From the NCBI GenBank assembly GCA_027062365.1, contig JAMOTK010000059.1, positions 1-36,779 on the forward strand: a DNA stretch of 36,779 bases, given 5' to 3'. A program made the position numbers and the translations under genes. Positions 10,435-21,386 of this stretch are shown here, piece by piece (the first letter of the stretch is position 1; each line of letters starts with the position of its first letter). This stretch comes from Sulfurovum sp. (GTDB lineage Bacteria > Campylobacterota > Campylobacteria > Campylobacterales > Sulfurovaceae). The notes below the pieces were generated by a model. It had not been told where the DNA came from. It saw nothing but the letters and a program-made list of their open reading frames with translations, and did no database searches.

Positions 10435-10469
10435 GAACCAAATTTTAAAAAATGGTTTTCAGGACTTGC

Positions 10470-11804
10470 ATGGCTAAAAATATTATAGAAAAAGCACCGT
10501 TTCTATTTAAGGATGTATTACCCTCTAATGGTTTATTTGATGTAAAGTATATTTTACGCTATAAAGAAGTAGATGATAAGGGAAATTACCTTTATTGGGA
10601 TCAGCTTAAATGGCGAATAGATGAAAATGATGATGCTAAAAAAGCTTGGTATGCTACTAAATGGGTAAGAGATAGACTATTAAAAAAGATTGTATTACTA
10701 GATAAAGATGATAACTCTTTTTATTTTTGTATGCCAGATACACTACAAGCAAAACTGTTTAAAATTTCAAATTTGGCTGGGCAAGGGATTATCCCTCATC
10801 ACTCTATTAAAAGTCAATATCTTATATCTTCATTGGTGATGGAAGAGGCTATCAGTAGTTCTCAGTTAGAGGGAGCTTCTACCACGAGAAAAGTAGCCAA
10901 AGAGATACTCATATCAGAACGAAAGCCCAAGACACAAGATGAGCAGATGATTGTCAATAATTATTTTCTTATGAAAGAGATACAAGGGTGTAAAGATGAA
11001 GAATTGTCTGTAGATATGATGCTTAATCTGCATCAAATAGCTACCAAAGGTACACATGATAATGACAATGTAGCAGGGGAACTTAGAAAAAGTAATGATA
11101 TTGTTATTATGGATAGTGAAGATAATATCTTACATCAGCCACCTTTGGTGTCTGCCTTACCTAAAAGGTTACGTAAATTATGTGATTTTGCCAATGAGAA
11201 GCACACAGGAGAAGAGGGTAGTATCTTTATACATCCTATTGTAAAAGCAATACTATTGCACTTTATGATTGGGTATGAACACCCCTTTGCTGATGGGAAT
11301 GGTAGAACGGCTAGAGCAATATTTTATTGGTTTATGCTAAAAAATGGATTTGATTATTTTGAATATATTTCTATTAGTAAATTTTTAAAAGAAGCACCAA
11401 AGAAATATAGTATGTCCTATCTGTATAGTGAGATTGATGACAATGATTTGACCTATTTTATATACTATCAAGTAGATATTATCTTAAGAGCTATTGATGA
11501 CTTACTTGCATATCTACAAAAGAAAAGTGTAGAATACGAAGAGATTACACATATTTTAAAAGATTCATCTTTACATGAACAGTTAAATTTTGTGCAAAAA
11601 GATATGATAAAAAAAGCAATAAAATATCCAGGTAGAGTCTTTACAGGTCTTGAAATATCAGCAGATTATGATATTTCTCCAACAACAGCGAGAAAATATC
11701 TAAATGCATTGGTAGCCTATAAAATACTTATTAGTTACAAAGATGGTAAAACCAAAGCATATATTGCTCCTGCAAATTTACATGAAATAATAAAGGCAAA
11801 TTAG
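10470..11804 (+). CDS. Fic-domain protein (class II, self-inhibited) with C-terminal winged helix
   Basis: Fic proteins usually transfer AMP from ATP to a target hydroxyl. The catalytic motif HPFADGNGRTARA is intact (catalytic His 271 from the chosen start). An N-terminal inhibitory helix SSQLEGAS supplies the (S/T)xxxE(G/N) glutamate (E134) that blocks ATP, which makes it class II. An N-terminal ~100-residue Fic_N-like region precedes it. The C-terminus (IKYPGRVFTGLEISADYDIS, then PTTARKYLNALVAYKIL) is a winged helix-turn-helix. ATG 10470 is preferred over 10452 because CAGGA lies just upstream. It stands alone, followed by a toxin-antitoxin pair, in an accessory pocket. The target is unknown. 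Confidence 0.88.
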   Translation: MAKNIIEKAPFLFKDVLPSNGLFDVKYILRYKEVDDKGNYLYWDQLKWRIDENDDAKKAWYATKWVRDRLLKKIVLLDKDDNSFYFCMPDTLQAKLFKISNLAGQGIIPHHSIKSQYLISSLVMEEAISSSQLEGASTTRKVAKEILISERKPKTQDEQMIVNNYFLMKEIQGCKDEELSVDMMLNLHQIATKGTHDNDNVAGELRKSNDIVIMDSEDNILHQPPLVSALPKRLRKLCDFANEKHTGEEGSIFIHPIVKAILLHFMIGYEHPFADGNGRTARAIFYWFMLKNGFDYFEYISISKFLKEAPKKYSMSYLYSEIDDNDLTYFIYYQVDIILRAIDDLLAYLQKKSVEYEEITHILKDSSLHEQLNFVQKDMIKKAIKYPGRVFTGLEISADYDISPTTARKYLNALVAYKILISYKDGKTKAYIAPANLHEIIKAN

Positions 11805-11900: not shown

Positions 11901-12197
11901 ATGGTAAACTATACAGAAAATGAACTTTTTTCTATTACTGACTTTACAAAAAAGATAAGTTCACTCCTTAAAGATGTAAAAAATAACACGCTTGAAAAGA
12001 TAGGGGTACTTAAAAACAATCGTTTAGAGGCTGTGGTACTTTCTACTGCTGAGTATACACGACTCAAACAGATAGAAGAAGATGCATTATGTAGTCAATG
12101 GACGTACTGGGAAGATGAAGAGTTAGATAACTTTGGTAAGATTGCTATAGGGTTGAGTAAACATGACTATGATGATGAGGACTACTCTACATGGTAG
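11901..12197 (+). CDS. Phd/YefM-type antitoxin
   Basis: At 98 residues, it has an N-terminal Phd/YefM fold signature: FSITDFTKKISSLLKDVKNN, then IGVLKNNRLEAVVLSTAEYTRLKQIEE. The acidic, disordered C-terminal tail (WEDEELDNF...HDYDDEDYSTW) should wrap the toxin. A strong AAGGAG lies before the ATG. Upstream, AGTAAAT is repeated at 11867-11873 and 11879-11885, and a -10-like TATACT lies at 11854-11859; these are candidates for autoregulation. It overlaps the toxin gene by 7 bases. Confidence 0.8.
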   Translation: MVNYTENELFSITDFTKKISSLLKDVKNNTLEKIGVLKNNRLEAVVLSTAEYTRLKQIEEDALCSQWTYWEDEELDNFGKIAIGLSKHDYDDEDYSTW

Positions 12198-12511
12198 GAA
12201 GTATTTATTTTATAGAGATGCCTTACTCTGATTTTAGAGAGTTCAAAGGGCGACCTGTACTTGTGTTTAGGCAGATAGATAAGAGTGATGTTCTTGTTCT
12301 ACCATTGACTACTAACCTAAACAGAGAAGGTATAGTCATAAGTAATCAAGATATAGAACAAGGCTCACTTAAAAAAGAGTCTGTGGTTATAATCCCAAAG
12401 ATAACGGCGATAGACTCGGAACTCATAAGTACAAGTCGTAAGATTGCTACACTAAAAGAGAAAACATTTAAAGTTGTACTACAAGAAATATGTACTAAGC
12501 TTGAGTGTTAA
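12191..12511 (+). CDS. MazF/PemK-like toxin
   Basis: At 106 residues, it shows the PemK/MazF beta-barrel pattern: GSIYFIEMPYSDFREFKGRP, VLVFRQIDKSDVLVLPLTTN and KKESVVIIPKITAIDSELI. MazF-type toxins cleave mRNA at short motifs. The match is to the more divergent PemK-like branch, in which the opening G-x-I/V-x-x-x segment and the R-P-V/VLV strand are kept. It overlaps the Phd-type antitoxin gene by 7 bases, the usual antitoxin-first order. The mixed Phd-antitoxin/MazF-toxin pairing is a known combination. Confidence 0.78.
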   Translation: MVGSIYFIEMPYSDFREFKGRPVLVFRQIDKSDVLVLPLTTNLNREGIVISNQDIEQGSLKKESVVIIPKITAIDSELISTSRKIATLKEKTFKVVLQEICTKLEC

Positions 12512-14870: not shown

Positions 14871-14925
14871 TAAAAATACCCTAAAAATTATCAAAATATT
14901 AAAAATCTTTAAAAATCTTTAAAAT
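14871..14925. repeat. phased A-tracts with tandem 10-mer
   Basis: Runs of 4-5 A start at about 14872, 14883, 14893, 14901, 14911 and 14921, roughly one helical turn apart. The 10-mer AAAAATCTTT is tandemly duplicated at 14901-14920. Such phasing predicts curved, easily melted DNA. It lies between the DnaA-box-like cluster and the end of jetD. Confidence 0.5.
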
Positions 14926-14939
14926 ATCGTAGTTTTTCA

Positions 14940-15830
14940 TCAATTTTCAGATGTACTAATACACGTTATTATAGAATCTATCCAACTCAATCCCTCTTGC
15001 TCAAAGCCTTTTTTAAACTTTCTGATTATATTAACTAAATTATTTACATTAACATCATCACAATTTAAATTCTCATACTGCTTTTGCTTTTTATACAACT
15101 CGCTATTGCCATATTTTTTAATTAGTTGTTCTATGTTGTCAGGTATAAACATAGAGTGCTTTTTAGATGCAATGCGTGGTAAAATTTTGTTTAAGTAGAT
15201 GTTTACTCCAGCTAAATCATAATCTCCAAAATGGATATATTCATTTTCCAAATCAGAAATCCACTCTAACATATAGGGAGTAATCACAACAAATAAAATA
15301 TTTGGCTTATCAAAAAACTTTGCATACCTTTTAGCAAACCAAACAACTTGATAGTTTTCTACTCCTACTATGACTGTATCTTCAGATATTTCTACTTTTT
15401 GAGTATGAAAAAAGAAGTACCCTAAACCATCGTTTGGTACTATGTTAATAGTATTGCCATCTAGTATTATATCTAGCTTTTGCAAAGATGATATATAGAG
15501 TCCGTGCATGCTTTTTGATGTTATCTCTTTTGAGTTATTATGATACTGCTGAATGGTGTCTCTTGATGATTTTTTATCAAATATGTCTTCTATATAGCTA
15601 TCTATTTTTTCTATGGAGTCAATATTGTAGTTATGGTTTTTTAAAAATAGAAATATATTCTCCTCTTTAGCTAAGTCTATGTACTTTCTACTACCCTTTT
15701 GACTCCTAGTTACTGCACCATTTAGTTTAAGTTGCTCTACTATCTTTTTATTTTTAAACTTACCTTCTGTTAAGCTTCCTATCTCTATGAGACTCTTTAG
15801 GTTTAAAAAGTCTTGTCTGTTTATTTTCAT
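14940..15830 (-). CDS. jetD: JetD-like Toprim nuclease subunit of a Wadjet system
   Basis: In Wadjet, JetD is the nuclease that cuts the plasmid after the SMC complex has extruded it. Its 296 residues have an N-terminal winged-helix-like region (IVEQLKLNGAVTRSQKGSRK). A DUF2220/Toprim-like core follows: E158 in VVGVENYQ, D203 and D205 in HFGDYDLAGVNIY, and a late EQE (277-279, GFEQEGLSW). These are the acidic metal-binding positions of the family. It is shorter than the two-domain JetD proteins of about 400 residues that I know. It overlaps jetC by 4 bases, last in a leftward four-gene operon. The call rests on motifs plus operon context. Confidence 0.8.
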   Translation of the reverse strand: MKINRQDFLNLKSLIEIGSLTEGKFKNKKIVEQLKLNGAVTRSQKGSRKYIDLAKEENIFLFLKNHNYNIDSIEKIDSYIEDIFDKKSSRDTIQQYHNNSKEITSKSMHGLYISSLQKLDIILDGNTINIVPNDGLGYFFFHTQKVEISEDTVIVGVENYQVVWFAKRYAKFFDKPNILFVVITPYMLEWISDLENEYIHFGDYDLAGVNIYLNKILPRIASKKHSMFIPDNIEQLIKKYGNSELYKKQKQYENLNCDDVNVNNLVNIIRKFKKGFEQEGLSWIDSIITCISTSEN

Positions 15831-18800
15831 ATATTTACTCTACTAGCAAGTATCATTTTAGAGTACTCACCAAAGTTTTGCCCCACATAAATAGTTGGGT
15901 ACATAGACATGAGCATATCATCTTCTGTGGGCATACCATTTAAAAATACAAAGCCACTCTGGTTTACAAAATCTTTTAACTCTCTAAAGTAGTCAGTAGA
16001 TATAGTACCAATCTCATCTAAAATACAGTGGCTAACAATTGGGATATCTTTGACAATATTTTTACTCACCATCTTAAGCATAGAGATGTTTATGATACTC
16101 TTTACAAGTGTTGAAGTTCCATTTGAGCCTATGTCATTGAGTGTCTGTCTCCACTTTAAGTCATTACCTCTCTCTACTACTTTAAACTCTAAGACAAAGC
16201 CATCTTCAAGCTCTAAGTACTCTTTAGATACATTTAGTAATTGTACCAATTCAACTATTTTTTCTCTTAACTCTGTTCTTAATCTTGCTGATGTTTTGTC
16301 ATCACCCAATGACTCAAAAAGTCCACTTAAAAATTTATCGTTATTTTTATCGTAAAATTCAGATAGCCCCTTTAAAGTGTTTAGTGTGAGGTTGTTGGTT
16401 TCAGAAAATTTAATGCCTATGCTATCTATGACCCTAAAAGAGTCCGTAGCTTTTCTAATGTAGTTTCCTAGAGCGTTTACTTCACTGTTAATATCTGCTA
16501 AGGCTTCATCAAAACTACTTAACTCTTTTTTTATGAGTACAATGTTACTTTTAAATTTATCTAGTGAAGCATCTTTAAGAAGTGATAATTTATCATTTTT
16601 TATGTACTCTATTAACTCTTTTGCAGTTTTTAAGTAAGATTTATCGTTAATGTTATCAGTAGGTGTAGATATTTTAAAGATATTACTACTCTTTATATTT
16701 TTAACTATTTTTACAACCAAATTTTCTATGGAGTCCTGCATATGTTTTATGTTATCAAATAGTTTTAAAATCCCATCTACTACAGCTAAGTTTACAACTG
16801 TACTCTCATCTAACTCATAGCTACCTAACTTTAGAGAACTCTTTATGGCTTTTTCTACTTTTTGACCTTCAATTTTTTCAGAGTATGCATTTGTAAACTC
16901 TTTTATGTCCTTTTGTTTAGTAAAAAGAACTTTATTTTTACTCTCTAACTCTAAACTTTTTACTTTAAACTCATTTTTCTGTTCACTCTTTTTTTGTTTT
17001 AAATCACTCAAATACTTCTCATCACTTTGAAGTTTTTGTTTTAAAACTGGTATATTTTCTATCTTATCTTTGTACTCTTTTAAGTAGTTTTCAACAACAT
17101 ATTTATGCTCTTCTATACTATCTAATAAGATTTTAAATCTTTTTATCTCATCAGATATACTCTTAAGAAGTTGCTTATCTACACCATTATTTTTTAACGC
17201 TTCATTCAGCTCATCTTGGCTACTCTGTATCTTAGCATTACACTCATCTTTTTTTCTCTCTATTATAGAAGCTAAAACCTGCTCACTCTCTTTTAACGCT
17301 TCATTAATTTTTGCTATATTAACGGCTATATTTGTACTTATGTTTTGAGTTATCTGCTCTATTTGTTTTTTAATTTGAGCTATTTTAGAGCTTAACTCCT
17401 CTTGCTGTATCTTACATAAAGCATAGGCTTTTTGAAGCTCCTCATTTTTAACTCTCTTTAATTCTACAGCATCATCTTTTACTTTTTGTAGGTTTAGTTT
17501 AGCTAAGGCTTGGTTGTTTTCGTAGCTTTTTTTGTTATCTTTTAGTTCATTTTCTTTTTTGTTGAGCATAGTTCTTTGTCTATCTTTCTCTCGTGTAGCT
17601 TTAGTAGCCTCATCCTCTAAAAGACGCTTTTTTCTACTGCTATCTTTGTTTAACTGCTTTATACTATCTTTTATAAGCTTTAACTCTTTTTGTAAGGTGG
17701 ACAGCTTATAAAAATTCTCAAACTCCTCTTCAAACTCTATGTTTAAACCAAAAATTGAACTACTGTTTTCATCTTCTTTGACTGTAAATGGCTTAGTAGA
17801 AAATAGTACTTCATCTTTTAGATACGTTACTAACTTTTTTGCACTCTTTATAGAGTTTCTGTTTATGTATCCATATAAATTATCTTTATCAAAATCAAGC
17901 TTCTCTTCTACTAATCTTTTTTGCTTAAACAGGTCTTCTTTTTTTTCTTTTGTCTCTCTATCTAATCTTTGGGAAGAGTCTTTAAGGTTTTTGGCTATTT
18001 CGTCTATTTGTTGTGTAACTTTTTGCATCTCAAAGCTATTGTCATTGAGTGATTTCTGAGTATCTAGTAGAGCTTTATCATATGTTTTTATCTGCTCTTC
18101 ATACTTTAAAATTTCCTCTTTGTTGAAAATAAAGTGTTTTATCTCTGCTTGTTCTTCTCGTATTTTGTTAAACTCTTCACTTTTCTCTTTAGAATTCACT
18201 TCTAACTCTATTACTTCATCTACATACTTTTGAGTCTCTAGTTTTATTTTATTCTCTTTAGACTCTAAAAGTTCTACCTTTTTTGACCCCATCTCATCCC
18301 TAAACTCAACGCTTTTACTTTTTAAGTCTAGTATCTGTTCATCGGAACTCTTTTTTAAATGCTCTTGTATCTTCTGGTACTTCTCTTTAATAGTCTCAAA
18401 TTTTGAAGTTAAAGCTCTGTATTTCTCTTGGTTTGTTTCTAGTTGGCTTTTATACTCTTTATCTTTTTTATACTCATCTACTAAGCGTTCTATATTTTTA
18501 GACTCATACGCTTTAGATTTTGCTTCTAACTCTCTTAACTCTTTGTTTTGTTCTGTAACCTCTTTAAAACTAGTATCTATTTTTTCATCTATTTTTGATT
18601 TCTCAATCTCATAGCTTCTCGTTTGAGTACTCTGTTGCTCTTCTACTTTTTCTACTTTTAGCTTTAACTCTTGCATTCTTTGACTAACTTGACTCCGTAA
18701 TGCTTCTAACTCATTTGCTTTTTCTTTAAAGCGTTTTCTATCGCTATGATATTTATGATATTTTTTAGATAACTCTTCTATATTTGGTATTTTTTGTTCA

Positions 18801-19519
18801 AATTTTACTATTTCATCTTTATGTTTTACATACTCATCTAGGTTTAGTTTTATCTCATTTAAGTCTATTTTCACAGCAGCGTTCTCTACAAGTGAAACTA
18901 TGCTATTTTTAATGCTAGTAGAGTTTACCTTTGAAGCCATAAAGATGTTTGAGAGTGTCTTTGCATACTCTCTTGTATATTTCACACTCTCAAAAAGAGA
19001 AAAGTCTACATTACTCTCTTGCTTTATTTTTTTAGTGTTTATATCTTTTTTATGAAAAGTATTTATGTATCTCTCTTTAATGCTTGTATGGTAGTTTGGT
19101 AAGTTGGCTTTTTGCACTTTTTCATTGAGTTTTTCTAAGTTAACAGGTCTATTTTCATCTATAAAAAGCTCTTTTACATCAAATGAAGCATTAGTCATAT
19201 CTATAAAGCTATAGTGTAACTTTCCACTCTTACTCACTACAAAGAGAAATCTACTACTACCCTTGGTATATTCGTACACTAAGTGTGAATTATGCTCTCT
19301 AAAGTACCAGTCATTAAAAGATTTTTTAGTGTCTGAGGTTAGGTTTAGTATGCTGTCCGAGTAGTCCATAGTGTAGAAAAACAGCACAGCTCTCATGATG
19401 GTAGTTTTACCAACACCACTCTCTCCTAAAAGCAGAGTATTTTTACTTAAGTCTATCTCATTAAACTCATATCCAGCACTCTTGATAAGATATATCTTCT
19501 TTAATCCATCGCTACTCAT
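15827..19519 (-). CDS. jetC: JetC-like SMC/MukB-type ATPase of a Wadjet system
   Basis: A 1230-residue motor protein. Walker A is G-ESG-V-GKTT (residues 32-40) in a MukB-like head. A very long Lys/Glu-rich coiled coil runs from about 230 to 1000. The C-terminal head half has a signature-like GSNGTSTLVKSI (from 1131) and Walker B IVSHCILDEIG (D1168, E1169), then GFVFLNGMPTEDD. The SMC/MukB/Rad50 architecture is certain. Assignment to Wadjet follows from the small partner genes and the Toprim gene. The length and HCxLDE box remind me of DUF3584-type ATPases rather than housekeeping SMC. It overlaps jetB by 8 and jetD by 4 bases. Confidence 0.85.
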   Translation of the reverse strand: MSSDGLKKIYLIKSAGYEFNEIDLSKNTLLLGESGVGKTTIMRAVLFFYTMDYSDSILNLTSDTKKSFNDWYFREHNSHLVYEYTKGSSRFLFVVSKSGKLHYSFIDMTNASFDVKELFIDENRPVNLEKLNEKVQKANLPNYHTSIKERYINTFHKKDINTKKIKQESNVDFSLFESVKYTREYAKTLSNIFMASKVNSTSIKNSIVSLVENAAVKIDLNEIKLNLDEYVKHKDEIVKFEQKIPNIEELSKKYHKYHSDRKRFKEKANELEALRSQVSQRMQELKLKVEKVEEQQSTQTRSYEIEKSKIDEKIDTSFKEVTEQNKELRELEAKSKAYESKNIERLVDEYKKDKEYKSQLETNQEKYRALTSKFETIKEKYQKIQEHLKKSSDEQILDLKSKSVEFRDEMGSKKVELLESKENKIKLETQKYVDEVIELEVNSKEKSEEFNKIREEQAEIKHFIFNKEEILKYEEQIKTYDKALLDTQKSLNDNSFEMQKVTQQIDEIAKNLKDSSQRLDRETKEKKEDLFKQKRLVEEKLDFDKDNLYGYINRNSIKSAKKLVTYLKDEVLFSTKPFTVKEDENSSSIFGLNIEFEEEFENFYKLSTLQKELKLIKDSIKQLNKDSSRKKRLLEDEATKATREKDRQRTMLNKKENELKDNKKSYENNQALAKLNLQKVKDDAVELKRVKNEELQKAYALCKIQQEELSSKIAQIKKQIEQITQNISTNIAVNIAKINEALKESEQVLASIIERKKDECNAKIQSSQDELNEALKNNGVDKQLLKSISDEIKRFKILLDSIEEHKYVVENYLKEYKDKIENIPVLKQKLQSDEKYLSDLKQKKSEQKNEFKVKSLELESKNKVLFTKQKDIKEFTNAYSEKIEGQKVEKAIKSSLKLGSYELDESTVVNLAVVDGILKLFDNIKHMQDSIENLVVKIVKNIKSSNIFKISTPTDNINDKSYLKTAKELIEYIKNDKLSLLKDASLDKFKSNIVLIKKELSSFDEALADINSEVNALGNYIRKATDSFRVIDSIGIKFSETNNLTLNTLKGLSEFYDKNNDKFLSGLFESLGDDKTSARLRTELREKIVELVQLLNVSKEYLELEDGFVLEFKVVERGNDLKWRQTLNDIGSNGTSTLVKSIINISMLKMVSKNIVKDIPIVSHCILDEIGTISTDYFRELKDFVNQSGFVFLNGMPTEDDMLMSMYPTIYVGQNFGEYSKMILASRVNI

Positions 19520-20066
19520 ATACTTCTATCTCCCCTAAAAAATACTCTATATAGTCATAAGAGTTTAAAACTATATACTCTGCGTTTGTAGAACTTCTCT
19601 CTTCTAAAAAACCATCTTTTTTTAACTTGTCTACTATCTTTTGTATGAACTCTCTATGATCATTGGCTTTTATGCCTTTCATTTTAGAAGATAACTCTTG
19701 AAGCTCTATACTAGAGTTGAGTTGTTGCTCCATAGCTGTTAGTGAAAACCTATAGCCTACTGAAAAGTTTACATCAAGTGTTTTAAAAAAATTGGCAATG
19801 TCTATGTAATCAACGATAAGTTCAAGTGCTGCCTCACCATCAGAAGCATCTTCTCTAGCAAAGTAAAAGTATCCCTCTCTTTTCATCAAAATATACCCTA
19901 GTGGCTTAAAGTAAGCTCTTAGCTCACTCTCTTTGCTAACCATTGCCTCGTAAATTTCAGCATTTGCATTTTTAGTACTGTTTTCATTGATGTAACCACC
20001 CTTTAGAATGATTTGGTAAATCTTCCCTATGTGCTGTGGCACTAACTCTTCTACATTTATAAGCAT
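19512..20066 (-). CDS. jetB: JetB-like (MukE/DUF4194-type) subunit of a Wadjet system
   Basis: At 184 residues it has the size of MukE-like accessory subunits that bind the kleisin. Visible are YQIILKGGYINENSTKNAN (winged-helix start), YILMKREGYFYFAREDASDG and a second winged helix near REFIQKIVDKLKKDGFLEER. Similarity to DUF4194 is judged from pattern only (short, two winged helices, the 'GY(F/L)..' hairpin). It overlaps jetA by 10 and jetC by 8 bases, in the order expected for jetA-jetB-jetC-jetD. Confidence 0.75.
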   Translation of the reverse strand: MLINVEELVPQHIGKIYQIILKGGYINENSTKNANAEIYEAMVSKESELRAYFKPLGYILMKREGYFYFAREDASDGEAALELIVDYIDIANFFKTLDVNFSVGYRFSLTAMEQQLNSSIELQELSSKMKGIKANDHREFIQKIVDKLKKDGFLEERSSTNAEYIVLNSYDYIEYFLGEIEVYE

Positions 20067-21220
20067 TTTTTTACCTCTACATACTCTCTATTGTTATATT
20101 TTGAAAAACTATCTGAATCTACTTCATACTTATCTGAATAGTTTTTCAACATTCGTATAAAGACACCTAGTAGTCTACTTTCATCTATGTTTTTACTCAC
20201 TAGAAATGACATTAAATCTTCATTTTGCTCTAAAAATGCACTATTTAACTTTTGATAATTATATAACTTTCTCTCAACTTTAATAACCTCATTTATATCA
20301 TACTTCAAATCACTCTCTTCTCTACTATCTTGTAACTCTATGGCTCTTGAACTTATGATTTTTCTAAGCGTTGCTATGTAGTCAAGTATCTGATCATCAG
20401 GGTGTAGTTTTTTTGGCTTTACACTTTTAGATACAACTTTTTGCTTCTGTGACAACTCTTCAATATTTGTTGAGTTAAGGAGTTTTTTATCATCTTTTAG
20501 GGCTTTGATTTTCTGTAGTTTTTTTATAAACTCACCATCTTTTATGCTTTGGTTTATAAAGTTTTTGATATCATCAAAGAGTCTTATAAATGATTTTTCT
20601 AGCTCTATAGATTCTCTTTTAAAGCGTAAAATAGCAGAGTTTATTTTGTAGTTATCCATAGTTCTAAAAAAATTATGTTGTTGATTTAAAAACTTATCAC
20701 AAGCATAAGTGGCATCTATGAGTTTTGTTATCTCATCTTTTGAGATTTTAAGTTTTTGCATTTTTATCTCAAAATTTGTTTCACTCTTAAAAGCAAAGAT
20801 GGAGTTTTGAGCAATGGCTCTAAGGTTGTGTTTTAGTAGAGGGGGTAGTTGTGAGAGTAGATTATAGATAGATTTTATCTCTTTATGGGTTGGTTCATCA
20901 CTTTTAAGCCTTTGGTTATAAAACCCTAACTCTTCATTTAGTTTTTCTAGCTTATCGCCCACTAGTCCAATGTTCGTTTGTGAATTATGCCCAAGCCTAG
21001 CCTCATAATACTCTAAAGTATCAGCATTAAGAGAGAGTTCATCATTAAATTCATCATACTCAATAATCTCAAAATGAATAGCTTCATCTAATTTTGAGCT
21101 ACTGTAACTATCTCTAATACTATCATTTGGTCTTGATTCATAACTATACAACTCTTGCATAATATCTCTACAAGAGTTCTGAATACTTATAATCTCTGAA
21201 ATATTTTTATTTATTGCCAT
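20057..21220 (-). CDS. jetA: JetA-like kleisin subunit of a Wadjet system
   Basis: This is a 387-residue, mostly helical, charged protein with no membrane segment. It has the position and size of MukF/JetA kleisins, which bridge the two SMC heads. The N-terminal third is acidic. The middle has long helices (LKHNLRAIAQNSIFAFKSE, and KINSAILRFKRESIELEKSF). The C-terminus (FIRMLKNYSDKYEVDSDSFS) may be the second head-binding helix set. I see no strong stand-alone motif, so the call depends on the operon. It is the first gene, with a -10 TATAAT about 20 bases upstream and a weak ribosome binding site. Confidence 0.72.
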   Translation of the reverse strand: MAINKNISEIISIQNSCRDIMQELYSYESRPNDSIRDSYSSSKLDEAIHFEIIEYDEFNDELSLNADTLEYYEARLGHNSQTNIGLVGDKLEKLNEELGFYNQRLKSDEPTHKEIKSIYNLLSQLPPLLKHNLRAIAQNSIFAFKSETNFEIKMQKLKISKDEITKLIDATYACDKFLNQQHNFFRTMDNYKINSAILRFKRESIELEKSFIRLFDDIKNFINQSIKDGEFIKKLQKIKALKDDKKLLNSTNIEELSQKQKVVSKSVKPKKLHPDDQILDYIATLRKIISSRAIELQDSREESDLKYDINEVIKVERKLYNYQKLNSAFLEQNEDLMSFLVSKNIDESRLLGVFIRMLKNYSDKYEVDSDSFSKYNNREYVEVKKCL

Positions 21221-21247: not shown

Positions 21248-21386
21248 ACATCTATAACTTAACTAACTAATGTTATGCTAAAAAAATAATAAGGAAAAAA
21301 GATGAACAAAAAAAATGAATTTTGAAAGATGATGGATTTTATAAGAAAAAAATAGACCCGTTATCATTTTCTTATAAACTTTTAGC

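What the first reader, a model, noticed from the sequence alone, without database searches (positions are those of the whole stretch)
14940..21220. Complete Wadjet-like JetABCD plasmid-defence operon with compact JetA and JetD
Four leftward genes overlap by 10, 8 and 4 bases and encode a kleisin-like, a MukE-like, a 1230-residue SMC-like and a Toprim protein. Walker A/B and the Toprim acidic residues (E158, D203, D205, EQE 277-279) are intact, so it should be active. JetD (296 aa) and JetA (387 aa) are shorter than the versions I know, and JetC ends in an HCILDEIG/LNGMPTEDD head like DUF3584 proteins. It sits as an AT-richer block between cmoA and the DAHP synthase gene. A divergent or rare Wadjet subtype in Campylobacterota is possible.
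Basis: partly seen in the sequence, partly recalled or inferred. Interest (0 to 1): 0.78.

Follow-up and report, generated by a model that had tools for sequence, protein, structure and literature searches.

The report
Uncatalogued fourth branch of Wadjet defence
A Sulfurovum-type bacterium carries, besides an ordinary Wadjet system elsewhere in its genome, a second four-gene DNA-motor-plus-DNA-cutter operon from a separate branch of the Wadjet family that a standard defence-gene library fails to recognise and that recurs in several bacterial phyla and on plasmids.

Summary
In detail: four intact, overlapping leftward genes (14940-21220) encode a kleisin-like, a MukE/MksE-like, a DUF3584 SMC-like and a CAP+Toprim protein. 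It is a Wadjet/MksBEFG-type SMC-nuclease but not type I, II or III. In a JetC-head tree the window's branch is split from types I-III and MukB with 100% bootstrap. PADLOC models that score 208-1236 bits on a genuine type I Wadjet in the same genome score at most 16 bits on this operon. The JetD fold matches C. glutamicum MksG, P. aeruginosa JetD and topoisomerase VI-A; the catalytic acidic residues are invariant over 40 homologues. The branch occurs in Campylobacterota, Bacteroidota, Lentisphaerota, Clostridia and Sericytochromatia, on Persicobacter plasmids, and, with changed gene order, on gammaproteobacterial plasmids. Nearest copies sit at other chromosomal sites and are under purifying selection, as expected of mobile defence. 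The compact JetA and JetD are typical of the branch, not truncations. Some relatives keep ABC but lack JetD, in a phylum where I find no canonical Smc. Most likely function (inferred): loop extrusion on small circular DNA, then cleavage by JetD. Not tested: anti-plasmid activity, and the position of P. aeruginosa MksB.

The parts
20057..21220 (-). jetA/mksF-like gene, kleisin-like subunit (387 aa; first gene of the operon)
   Evidence: no family passes in Pfam, NCBIfam or PADLOC; AlphaFold2 model pLDDT 72 with MukF among the best Foldseek hits and MukF 7nz2 aligned over residues 6-387
19512..20066 (-). jetB/mksE-like gene, KITE (MukE-like) subunit (184 aa)
   Evidence: PF21980 MksE 83.9 bits; family profile reaches MukE structures at E 0.0045
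15827..19519 (-). jetC/mksB-like gene, SMC-like ATPase (1230 aa)
   Evidence: PF12128 DUF3584 136.6 bits over residues 20-1212; tree
19400..19426 (-). Walker A GESGVGKTT (JetC 32-40)
   Evidence: G32, G37, K38 invariant in 25 homologues
16112..16129 (-). ABC signature GSNGTS (JetC 1131-1136)
16007..16027 (-). Walker B CILDEIG (JetC 1165-1171)
   Evidence: D1168 and E1169 invariant
14940..15830 (-). jetD/mksG-like gene, winged-helix (CAP) + Toprim nuclease (296 aa; about the last 15 aa are a window-specific tail)
   Evidence: AlphaFold2 pLDDT 92.9; VIA-align 8b7f MksG Z 11.8, 7til JetD Z 11.0; PF23947 DUF7281 26 bits in the Pfam scan, 27.2 with neighbours in the genome scan
15357..15359 (-). 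Toprim E158
   Evidence: invariant in 40 homologues
15216..15224 (-). Toprim DxD (D203, D205)
   Evidence: invariant in 40 homologues
14994..15002 (-). EQE 277-279; Q278 and E279 invariant
   Evidence: same ExE spacing as E349/E351 of MksG (PMC10123090)
14879..21373 (.). approximate extent of the block inserted between cmoA and the DAHP synthase gene
   Evidence: homology to operon-free relatives ends at 14878 (L145) and resumes at 21374 (L144)

Best explanation
The operon encodes a four-subunit SMC-nuclease of the Wadjet/MksBEFG superfamily, in a branch separate from Wadjet types I, II and III. Inferred mechanism, by analogy with type I: two JetC dimers joined by JetA kleisin and JetB KITE subunits load on DNA and extrude loops using ATP. 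On small closed circles the motors run out of DNA, and the sharply bent DNA is passed to a JetD Toprim dimer that cuts it, so that plasmids are lost while the long chromosome escapes. Shown here: gene order, intact ATPase and Toprim motifs, JetD fold (predicted), branch position, co-conservation of all four genes, different sites in relatives, purifying selection. Inferred: complex formation, loop extrusion, cleavage, plasmids as the target.
For: (1) Every homologue locus found through JetD whose contig extends far enough has A-B-C-D in the same order with sizes near 400/190/1220/285 aa. (2) JetD model pLDDT 92.9; best structural matches are C. glutamicum MksG (Z 11.8), M. mazei topoisomerase VI-A and P. 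aeruginosa JetD (Z 11.0); Foldseek E 1e-6 to topoisomerase VI-A. A sister-clade JetD (L018) passes the Pfam cut-off for 'Wadjet protein JetD, C-terminal' (35.5 bits), and the two JetD profiles align at 100% probability, E 3e-48. (3) JetA: four of the seven best Foldseek hits are MukF structures, and a MukF alignment spans residues 6-387. (4) The JetC-head tree separates the branch from types I-III and MukB with 100% bootstrap and 0.999 support after adding 12 sequences. (5) Defence-like distribution: close copies in 2 of about 60 genus-mates plus one divergent copy next to an integrase-like gene, at different sites; cmoA and DAHP synthase are direct neighbours in 24 of 29 relatives; homology is limited to the four genes. 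(6) dN/dS 0.06-0.22 for the comparisons that could be measured, JetD 0.13-0.21.
Against: No experiment. The kleisin fold rests on a middling model (pLDDT 72, Foldseek E 0.03). No significant sequence similarity between JetA of this branch and type I JetA or MukF, and direct profile comparison of JetD with the type I JetD of the same genome is weak (E 0.019). JetD lacks much of the N-terminal part of type I JetD, so activation may differ. Neither the target (plasmid, phage or other DNA) nor a size cut-off can be read from sequence.
Confidence: 0.76

Rival explanations
1. It is a chromosome-organising condensin (MksBEF-like) with an accessory Toprim protein, serving segregation in a lineage without Smc.
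For: No Smc over the curated cut-off in 24 Campylobacterota genomes while 11 of 14 controls ring. Relatives of the same branch exist as ABC without any JetD: G144, G091 and G074 genome-wide, and two Persicobacter large plasmids.
Against: The window's system is sporadic (3 of about 60 genus-mates have a match) and lies at different sites, unlike a housekeeping condensin. JetD is intact and under purifying selection. Most Smc-less relatives have no such complex.
Confidence: 0.1
2. It is a divergent member of Wadjet type I, II or III rather than a separate branch.
For: Same four-subunit logic and gene order as type I; weak similarity of JetB (E 0.007) and JetC Walker A (E 0.0003) to type I.
Against: 100% bootstrap split from types I-III plus MukB. 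PADLOC scores at most 16 bits against 208-1236 for the same genome's type I operon. Different Pfam signature: type I JetC matches PF13555 and PF13558, not PF12128; type I JetB matches DUF4194 at 128.6 bits.
Confidence: 0.08
3. The SMC-nuclease acts mainly against something other than small plasmids, such as phage circles or integrating elements; on plasmid-borne copies it acts in competition between plasmids.
For: Members lie on plasmids of Persicobacter, Vibrio, Pseudomonas, Marinobacter and Acinetobacter, which must escape their own system.
Against: The carrier plasmids inspected are about 110-904 kb, above the roughly 50-100 kb limit reported for type I (PMC10586767), so carriage is compatible with an anti-plasmid role.
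Confidence: 0.15

Closest known systems
Wadjet type I (JetABCD / MksBEFG / EptABCD)
   Same: Four genes kleisin-KITE-SMC-Toprim in the order A-B-C-D; JetD CAP+Toprim fold with DxD and ExE.
   Different: No significant PADLOC match. JetC is PF12128 instead of PF13555/PF13558, JetB is PF21980 without a DUF4194 pass. JetA 387 against 478 aa and JetD 296 against 395 aa in the same genome. Separate branch in the tree.
Wadjet types II and III
   Same: SMC-nuclease of the same superfamily.
   Different: JetC of types II and III is 1365-1513 aa in the intact references used, against 1230; each is a separate 100% clade in the tree.
MksBEF (P. aeruginosa chromosomal condensin)
   Same: JetB falls in the Pfam family named after MksE, a broad family that also takes in type I JetB.
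   Different: JetB scores only 21 bits on the NCBIfam MksE model whose cut-off is 400. MksBEF has no nuclease (PMC10586767). P. aeruginosa MksB was not available, so the branch relationship is not tested.
MukBEF
   Same: JetB profile reaches MukE structures; JetA model matches MukF.
   Different: MukB falls with types I-III, not with the window's branch; MukBEF has no nuclease.
Topoisomerase VI-A / Spo11
   Same: Winged-helix + Toprim fold.
   Different: I saw no conserved tyrosine in the winged-helix part of the JetD alignment, as expected of a nuclease rather than a topoisomerase.

Membership tests
Wadjet/MksBEFG superfamily (kleisin + KITE + SMC + Toprim nuclease operon) | SMC-like ATPase with Walker A, signature and Walker B flanking long coiled coils | tested here: met
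Wadjet/MksBEFG superfamily (kleisin + KITE + SMC + Toprim nuclease operon) | KITE (MukE/MksE-like) subunit encoded next to the SMC gene | tested here: met
   PF21980 MksE 83.9 bits, cut-off 27
Wadjet/MksBEFG superfamily (kleisin + KITE + SMC + Toprim nuclease operon) | Kleisin subunit (MukF/JetA fold) | tested here: inconclusive
   MukF is four of the seven best Foldseek hits but at E 0.03-0.05 on a pLDDT-72 model; VIA-align Z about 11, tied with unrelated helical bundles, MukF 7nz2 aligned over 6-387 with large rmsd
Wadjet/MksBEFG superfamily (kleisin + KITE + SMC + Toprim nuclease operon) | JetD/MksG: CAP winged helix + Toprim with catalytic acidic residues | tested here: met
Wadjet/MksBEFG superfamily (kleisin + KITE + SMC + Toprim nuclease operon) | Restricts plasmids / cleaves circular DNA with ATP | not testable with these tools
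   needs an experiment
Wadjet type I | Proteins match type I JetA1-JetD1 models | tested here: not met
   at most 16 bits; positive control in the same genome 483/208/1236/364 bits
Wadjet type I | JetC groups with type I JetC | tested here: not met
   100% bootstrap split; 0.999 support in the enlarged tree
Wadjet type II or III | JetC groups with type II or III JetC; JetC2/JetC3 models match | tested here: not met
MksBEF condensin | Three-gene operon without nuclease | tested here: not met
   JetD present and conserved
MksBEF condensin | SMC subunit groups with P. aeruginosa MksB | not tested
   no P. aeruginosa chromosome was reachable with the tools
Housekeeping condensin (Smc-ScpAB) | SMC subunit matches SMC_prok_B over the cut-off | tested here: not met
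   window JetC 14.5 bits against a cut-off of 567; no match in G000

The most novel reading that the evidence does not exclude
The window belongs to an unnamed fourth Wadjet branch in which the nuclease is a loosely held module. In Campylobacterota, where no canonical Smc was found in the genomes tested, and on Persicobacter large plasmids, some lineages have lost JetD and kept the ABC motor, so that a plasmid-defence machine has repeatedly become the cell's only or second condensin.
Probability: 0.3. Interest if true: 0.82.

Novelty: new variant of a known kind. Interest (0 to 1): 0.62.

Why it matters
A PADLOC screen with the 2023 models would miss this branch, and plasmid records label its genes 'hypothetical protein' and 'ATP-binding protein'. 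If it restricts plasmids, the barrier to plasmid spread in gut Bacteroidales, sulfur-oxidising Campylobacterota and some Gammaproteobacteria is larger than counted. The branch also contains relatives with and without the nuclease in the same chromosomal neighbourhood, which makes the proposal that MksBEF-type condensins arose from defence systems by loss of JetD (PMC10586767) directly testable.

Tried and rejected
Single-sequence PDB searches with JetC and JetD gave nothing useful; profile PDB searches for JetC returned coiled-coil noise and for JetA and JetD no relevant hit. tblastn of the window's JetD against phages: no match. I first read G359 (L136) as having lost JetD; a genome-wide search found its JetD on another contig, so it is not counted as a loss; G350 has JetD cut by the contig end and is not counted either. 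I considered that JetA and JetD were truncated: rejected, sizes are typical of the branch. Terminal repeats or an insertion sequence bounding the block: none convincing. Papers on a 'type IV Wadjet': none in the held library. DUF7281 in papers: none. The 2025 Cell paper on MukBEF DNA capture (PMC7617805) surveyed the Wadjet group with an MksF length filter of 400-1200 aa, which would exclude the window's 387-aa JetA; its supplement could not be read, so relatives may be listed there. An E. coli locus could not serve as a centre for genome searches, so P. aeruginosa MksBEF could not be placed.
Full report
OBSERVATION. The ATPase motifs and Toprim residues are present and invariant in alignments of 25 JetC and 40 JetD homologues. 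The operon has 30% G+C against 35% for the window.

WHAT THE PROTEINS ARE. Pfam: JetC is DUF3584 PF12128 (136.6 bits, nearly full length), JetB is MksE PF21980 (83.9 bits), JetD is DUF7281 PF23947 just under the cut-off (26 of 27 bits), JetA has no family. PADLOC gives only scores of at most 16 bits; NCBIfam names none. With an alignment of 40 homologues, JetD models at pLDDT 92.9 and matches topoisomerase VI-A by Foldseek (E 1e-6) and, on structural re-alignment, C. glutamicum MksG (8b7f, Z 11.8, 152 residues, 3.2 A), topoisomerase VI-A and P. aeruginosa JetD (7til, Z 11.0). JetA models less well (pLDDT 72); four of its seven best Foldseek hits are MukF structures, and MukF is the match that spans the whole chain, so kleisin is likely but not settled.

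INTERNAL CONTROL. The same genome holds a genuine type I Wadjet on contig C23. There the PADLOC models score 483 (JetA1), 208 (JetB1), 1236 (JetC1) and 364 bits (JetD1), and JetC matches PF13555/PF13558, not PF12128. The failure of the models on the window operon is therefore a property of the operon, not of the search.

BRANCH. A scan of about 85,000 species genomes with the JetD alignment gave 34 loci in Sulfurovum, Sulfurimonas, Arcobacter-type bacteria, many Bacteroidales and other Bacteroidetes, Lentisphaeria, Clostridiales and Sericytochromatia. Wherever the contig reaches far enough, all four genes stand in the order A-B-C-D with sizes near 400, 190, 1220 and 285 aa. The short JetA and JetD are thus the normal form of this branch. 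In a tree of JetC heads (67 sequences, 474 columns) types I, II and III each form a 100% clade, and the window's branch is split from all of them plus MukB with 100% bootstrap; an enlarged FastTree keeps the split at 0.999. The type labels of the references rest on PADLOC models. Branching order inside the window's branch is weakly supported in places. P. aeruginosa MksB could not be included.

PLASMIDS. The complete system is on Persicobacter plasmid pPP6, annotated as hypothetical and ATP-binding proteins. Related four-gene sets in the order C-B-A-D lie on plasmids of Vibrio, Pseudomonas, Marinobacter and Acinetobacter; in the four JetD proteins checked, from Vibrio, Pseudomonas and Acinetobacter, DUF7281 scores 69-108 bits, and the Marinobacter JetD is reached only weakly by the family profile.

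MOBILITY AND SELECTION. Close copies occur in two of about 60 genus-mates (90% and 76% JetC identity), with a divergent one in a third. These copies lie in chromosomal contexts different from the window's. In 24 of 29 relatives cmoA and the DAHP synthase gene are neighbours with a short gap; the window operon sits in that gap. DNA homology between the window and the G042 and G012 copies covers just the four genes. dN/dS of the comparisons is 0.06-0.22 (one JetD comparison was saturated).

NUCLEASE LOSS. A sister clade in Campylobacterota has A-B-C with JetD before, after or absent. JetD is absent genome-wide in G144, G091 and G074 at the sensitivity of the search; G091 and G074 share flanking genes with the JetD-bearing G168 and G126, which points to loss in place. 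Two Persicobacter large plasmids carry A-B-C without an adjacent JetD. No Smc over the cut-off was found in 24 Campylobacterota genomes, while 11 of 14 control genomes ring. That the nuclease-free cores act as condensins is a hypothesis.

MECHANISM. By analogy with type I (PMC10586767; PMC13040014), JetABC should extrude loops and, on small circles, hand bent DNA to the JetD dimer for cutting. The steps supported here are the parts and their motifs; complex formation, extrusion, cutting and the plasmid target are inferred.

VERDICT. A real, intact SMC-nuclease operon that belongs to an uncatalogued branch of a known kind of defence system. Interest comes from the breadth of the branch, its invisibility to the PADLOC library used, and the natural series with and without the nuclease.

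Noticed in passing
G000 contig C23, L130:6520-16530: The window's genome also holds a type I Wadjet operon (PADLOC 483/208/1236/364 bits), with a GmrSD-type restriction gene on the opposite strand lodged between jetC and jetD.
   Followed up: partly
L132, L138, L140 (G144, G091, G074); L095, L176: ABC cores of the same branch without JetD, in Campylobacterota and on Persicobacter large plasmids; candidate condensins derived from defence systems.
   Followed up: partly
24 Campylobacterota genomes including G000: No canonical Smc over the NCBIfam cut-off, although control genomes ring.
   Followed up: partly
L094, L106-L110: Plasmids of Vibrio, Pseudomonas, Marinobacter and Acinetobacter carry C-B-A-D relatives, all annotated as hypothetical or ATP-binding proteins; the Vibrio campbellii copy (L107) has JetC and apparently JetA each split into two annotated genes.
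   Followed up: partly
window 11901-12511: Phd/YefM-like antitoxin (below the Pfam cut-off) and PemK/MazF-like toxin pair upstream of the tlyA-like gene.
   Followed up: no
window 10452-11804: Fic/DOC family protein, in an AT-richer stretch after the ligase-like gene.
   Followed up: no
L173:14080-16050 (G039): The closest relative by DAHP synthase has a 656-aa sulfatase-family gene at the same cmoA-DAHP junction, so the junction may be a variable site.
   Followed up: partly
L019 / G050: JetD of this sister-clade operon has an in-frame TAA in the genome search, so it may be decaying or start later.
   Followed up: no
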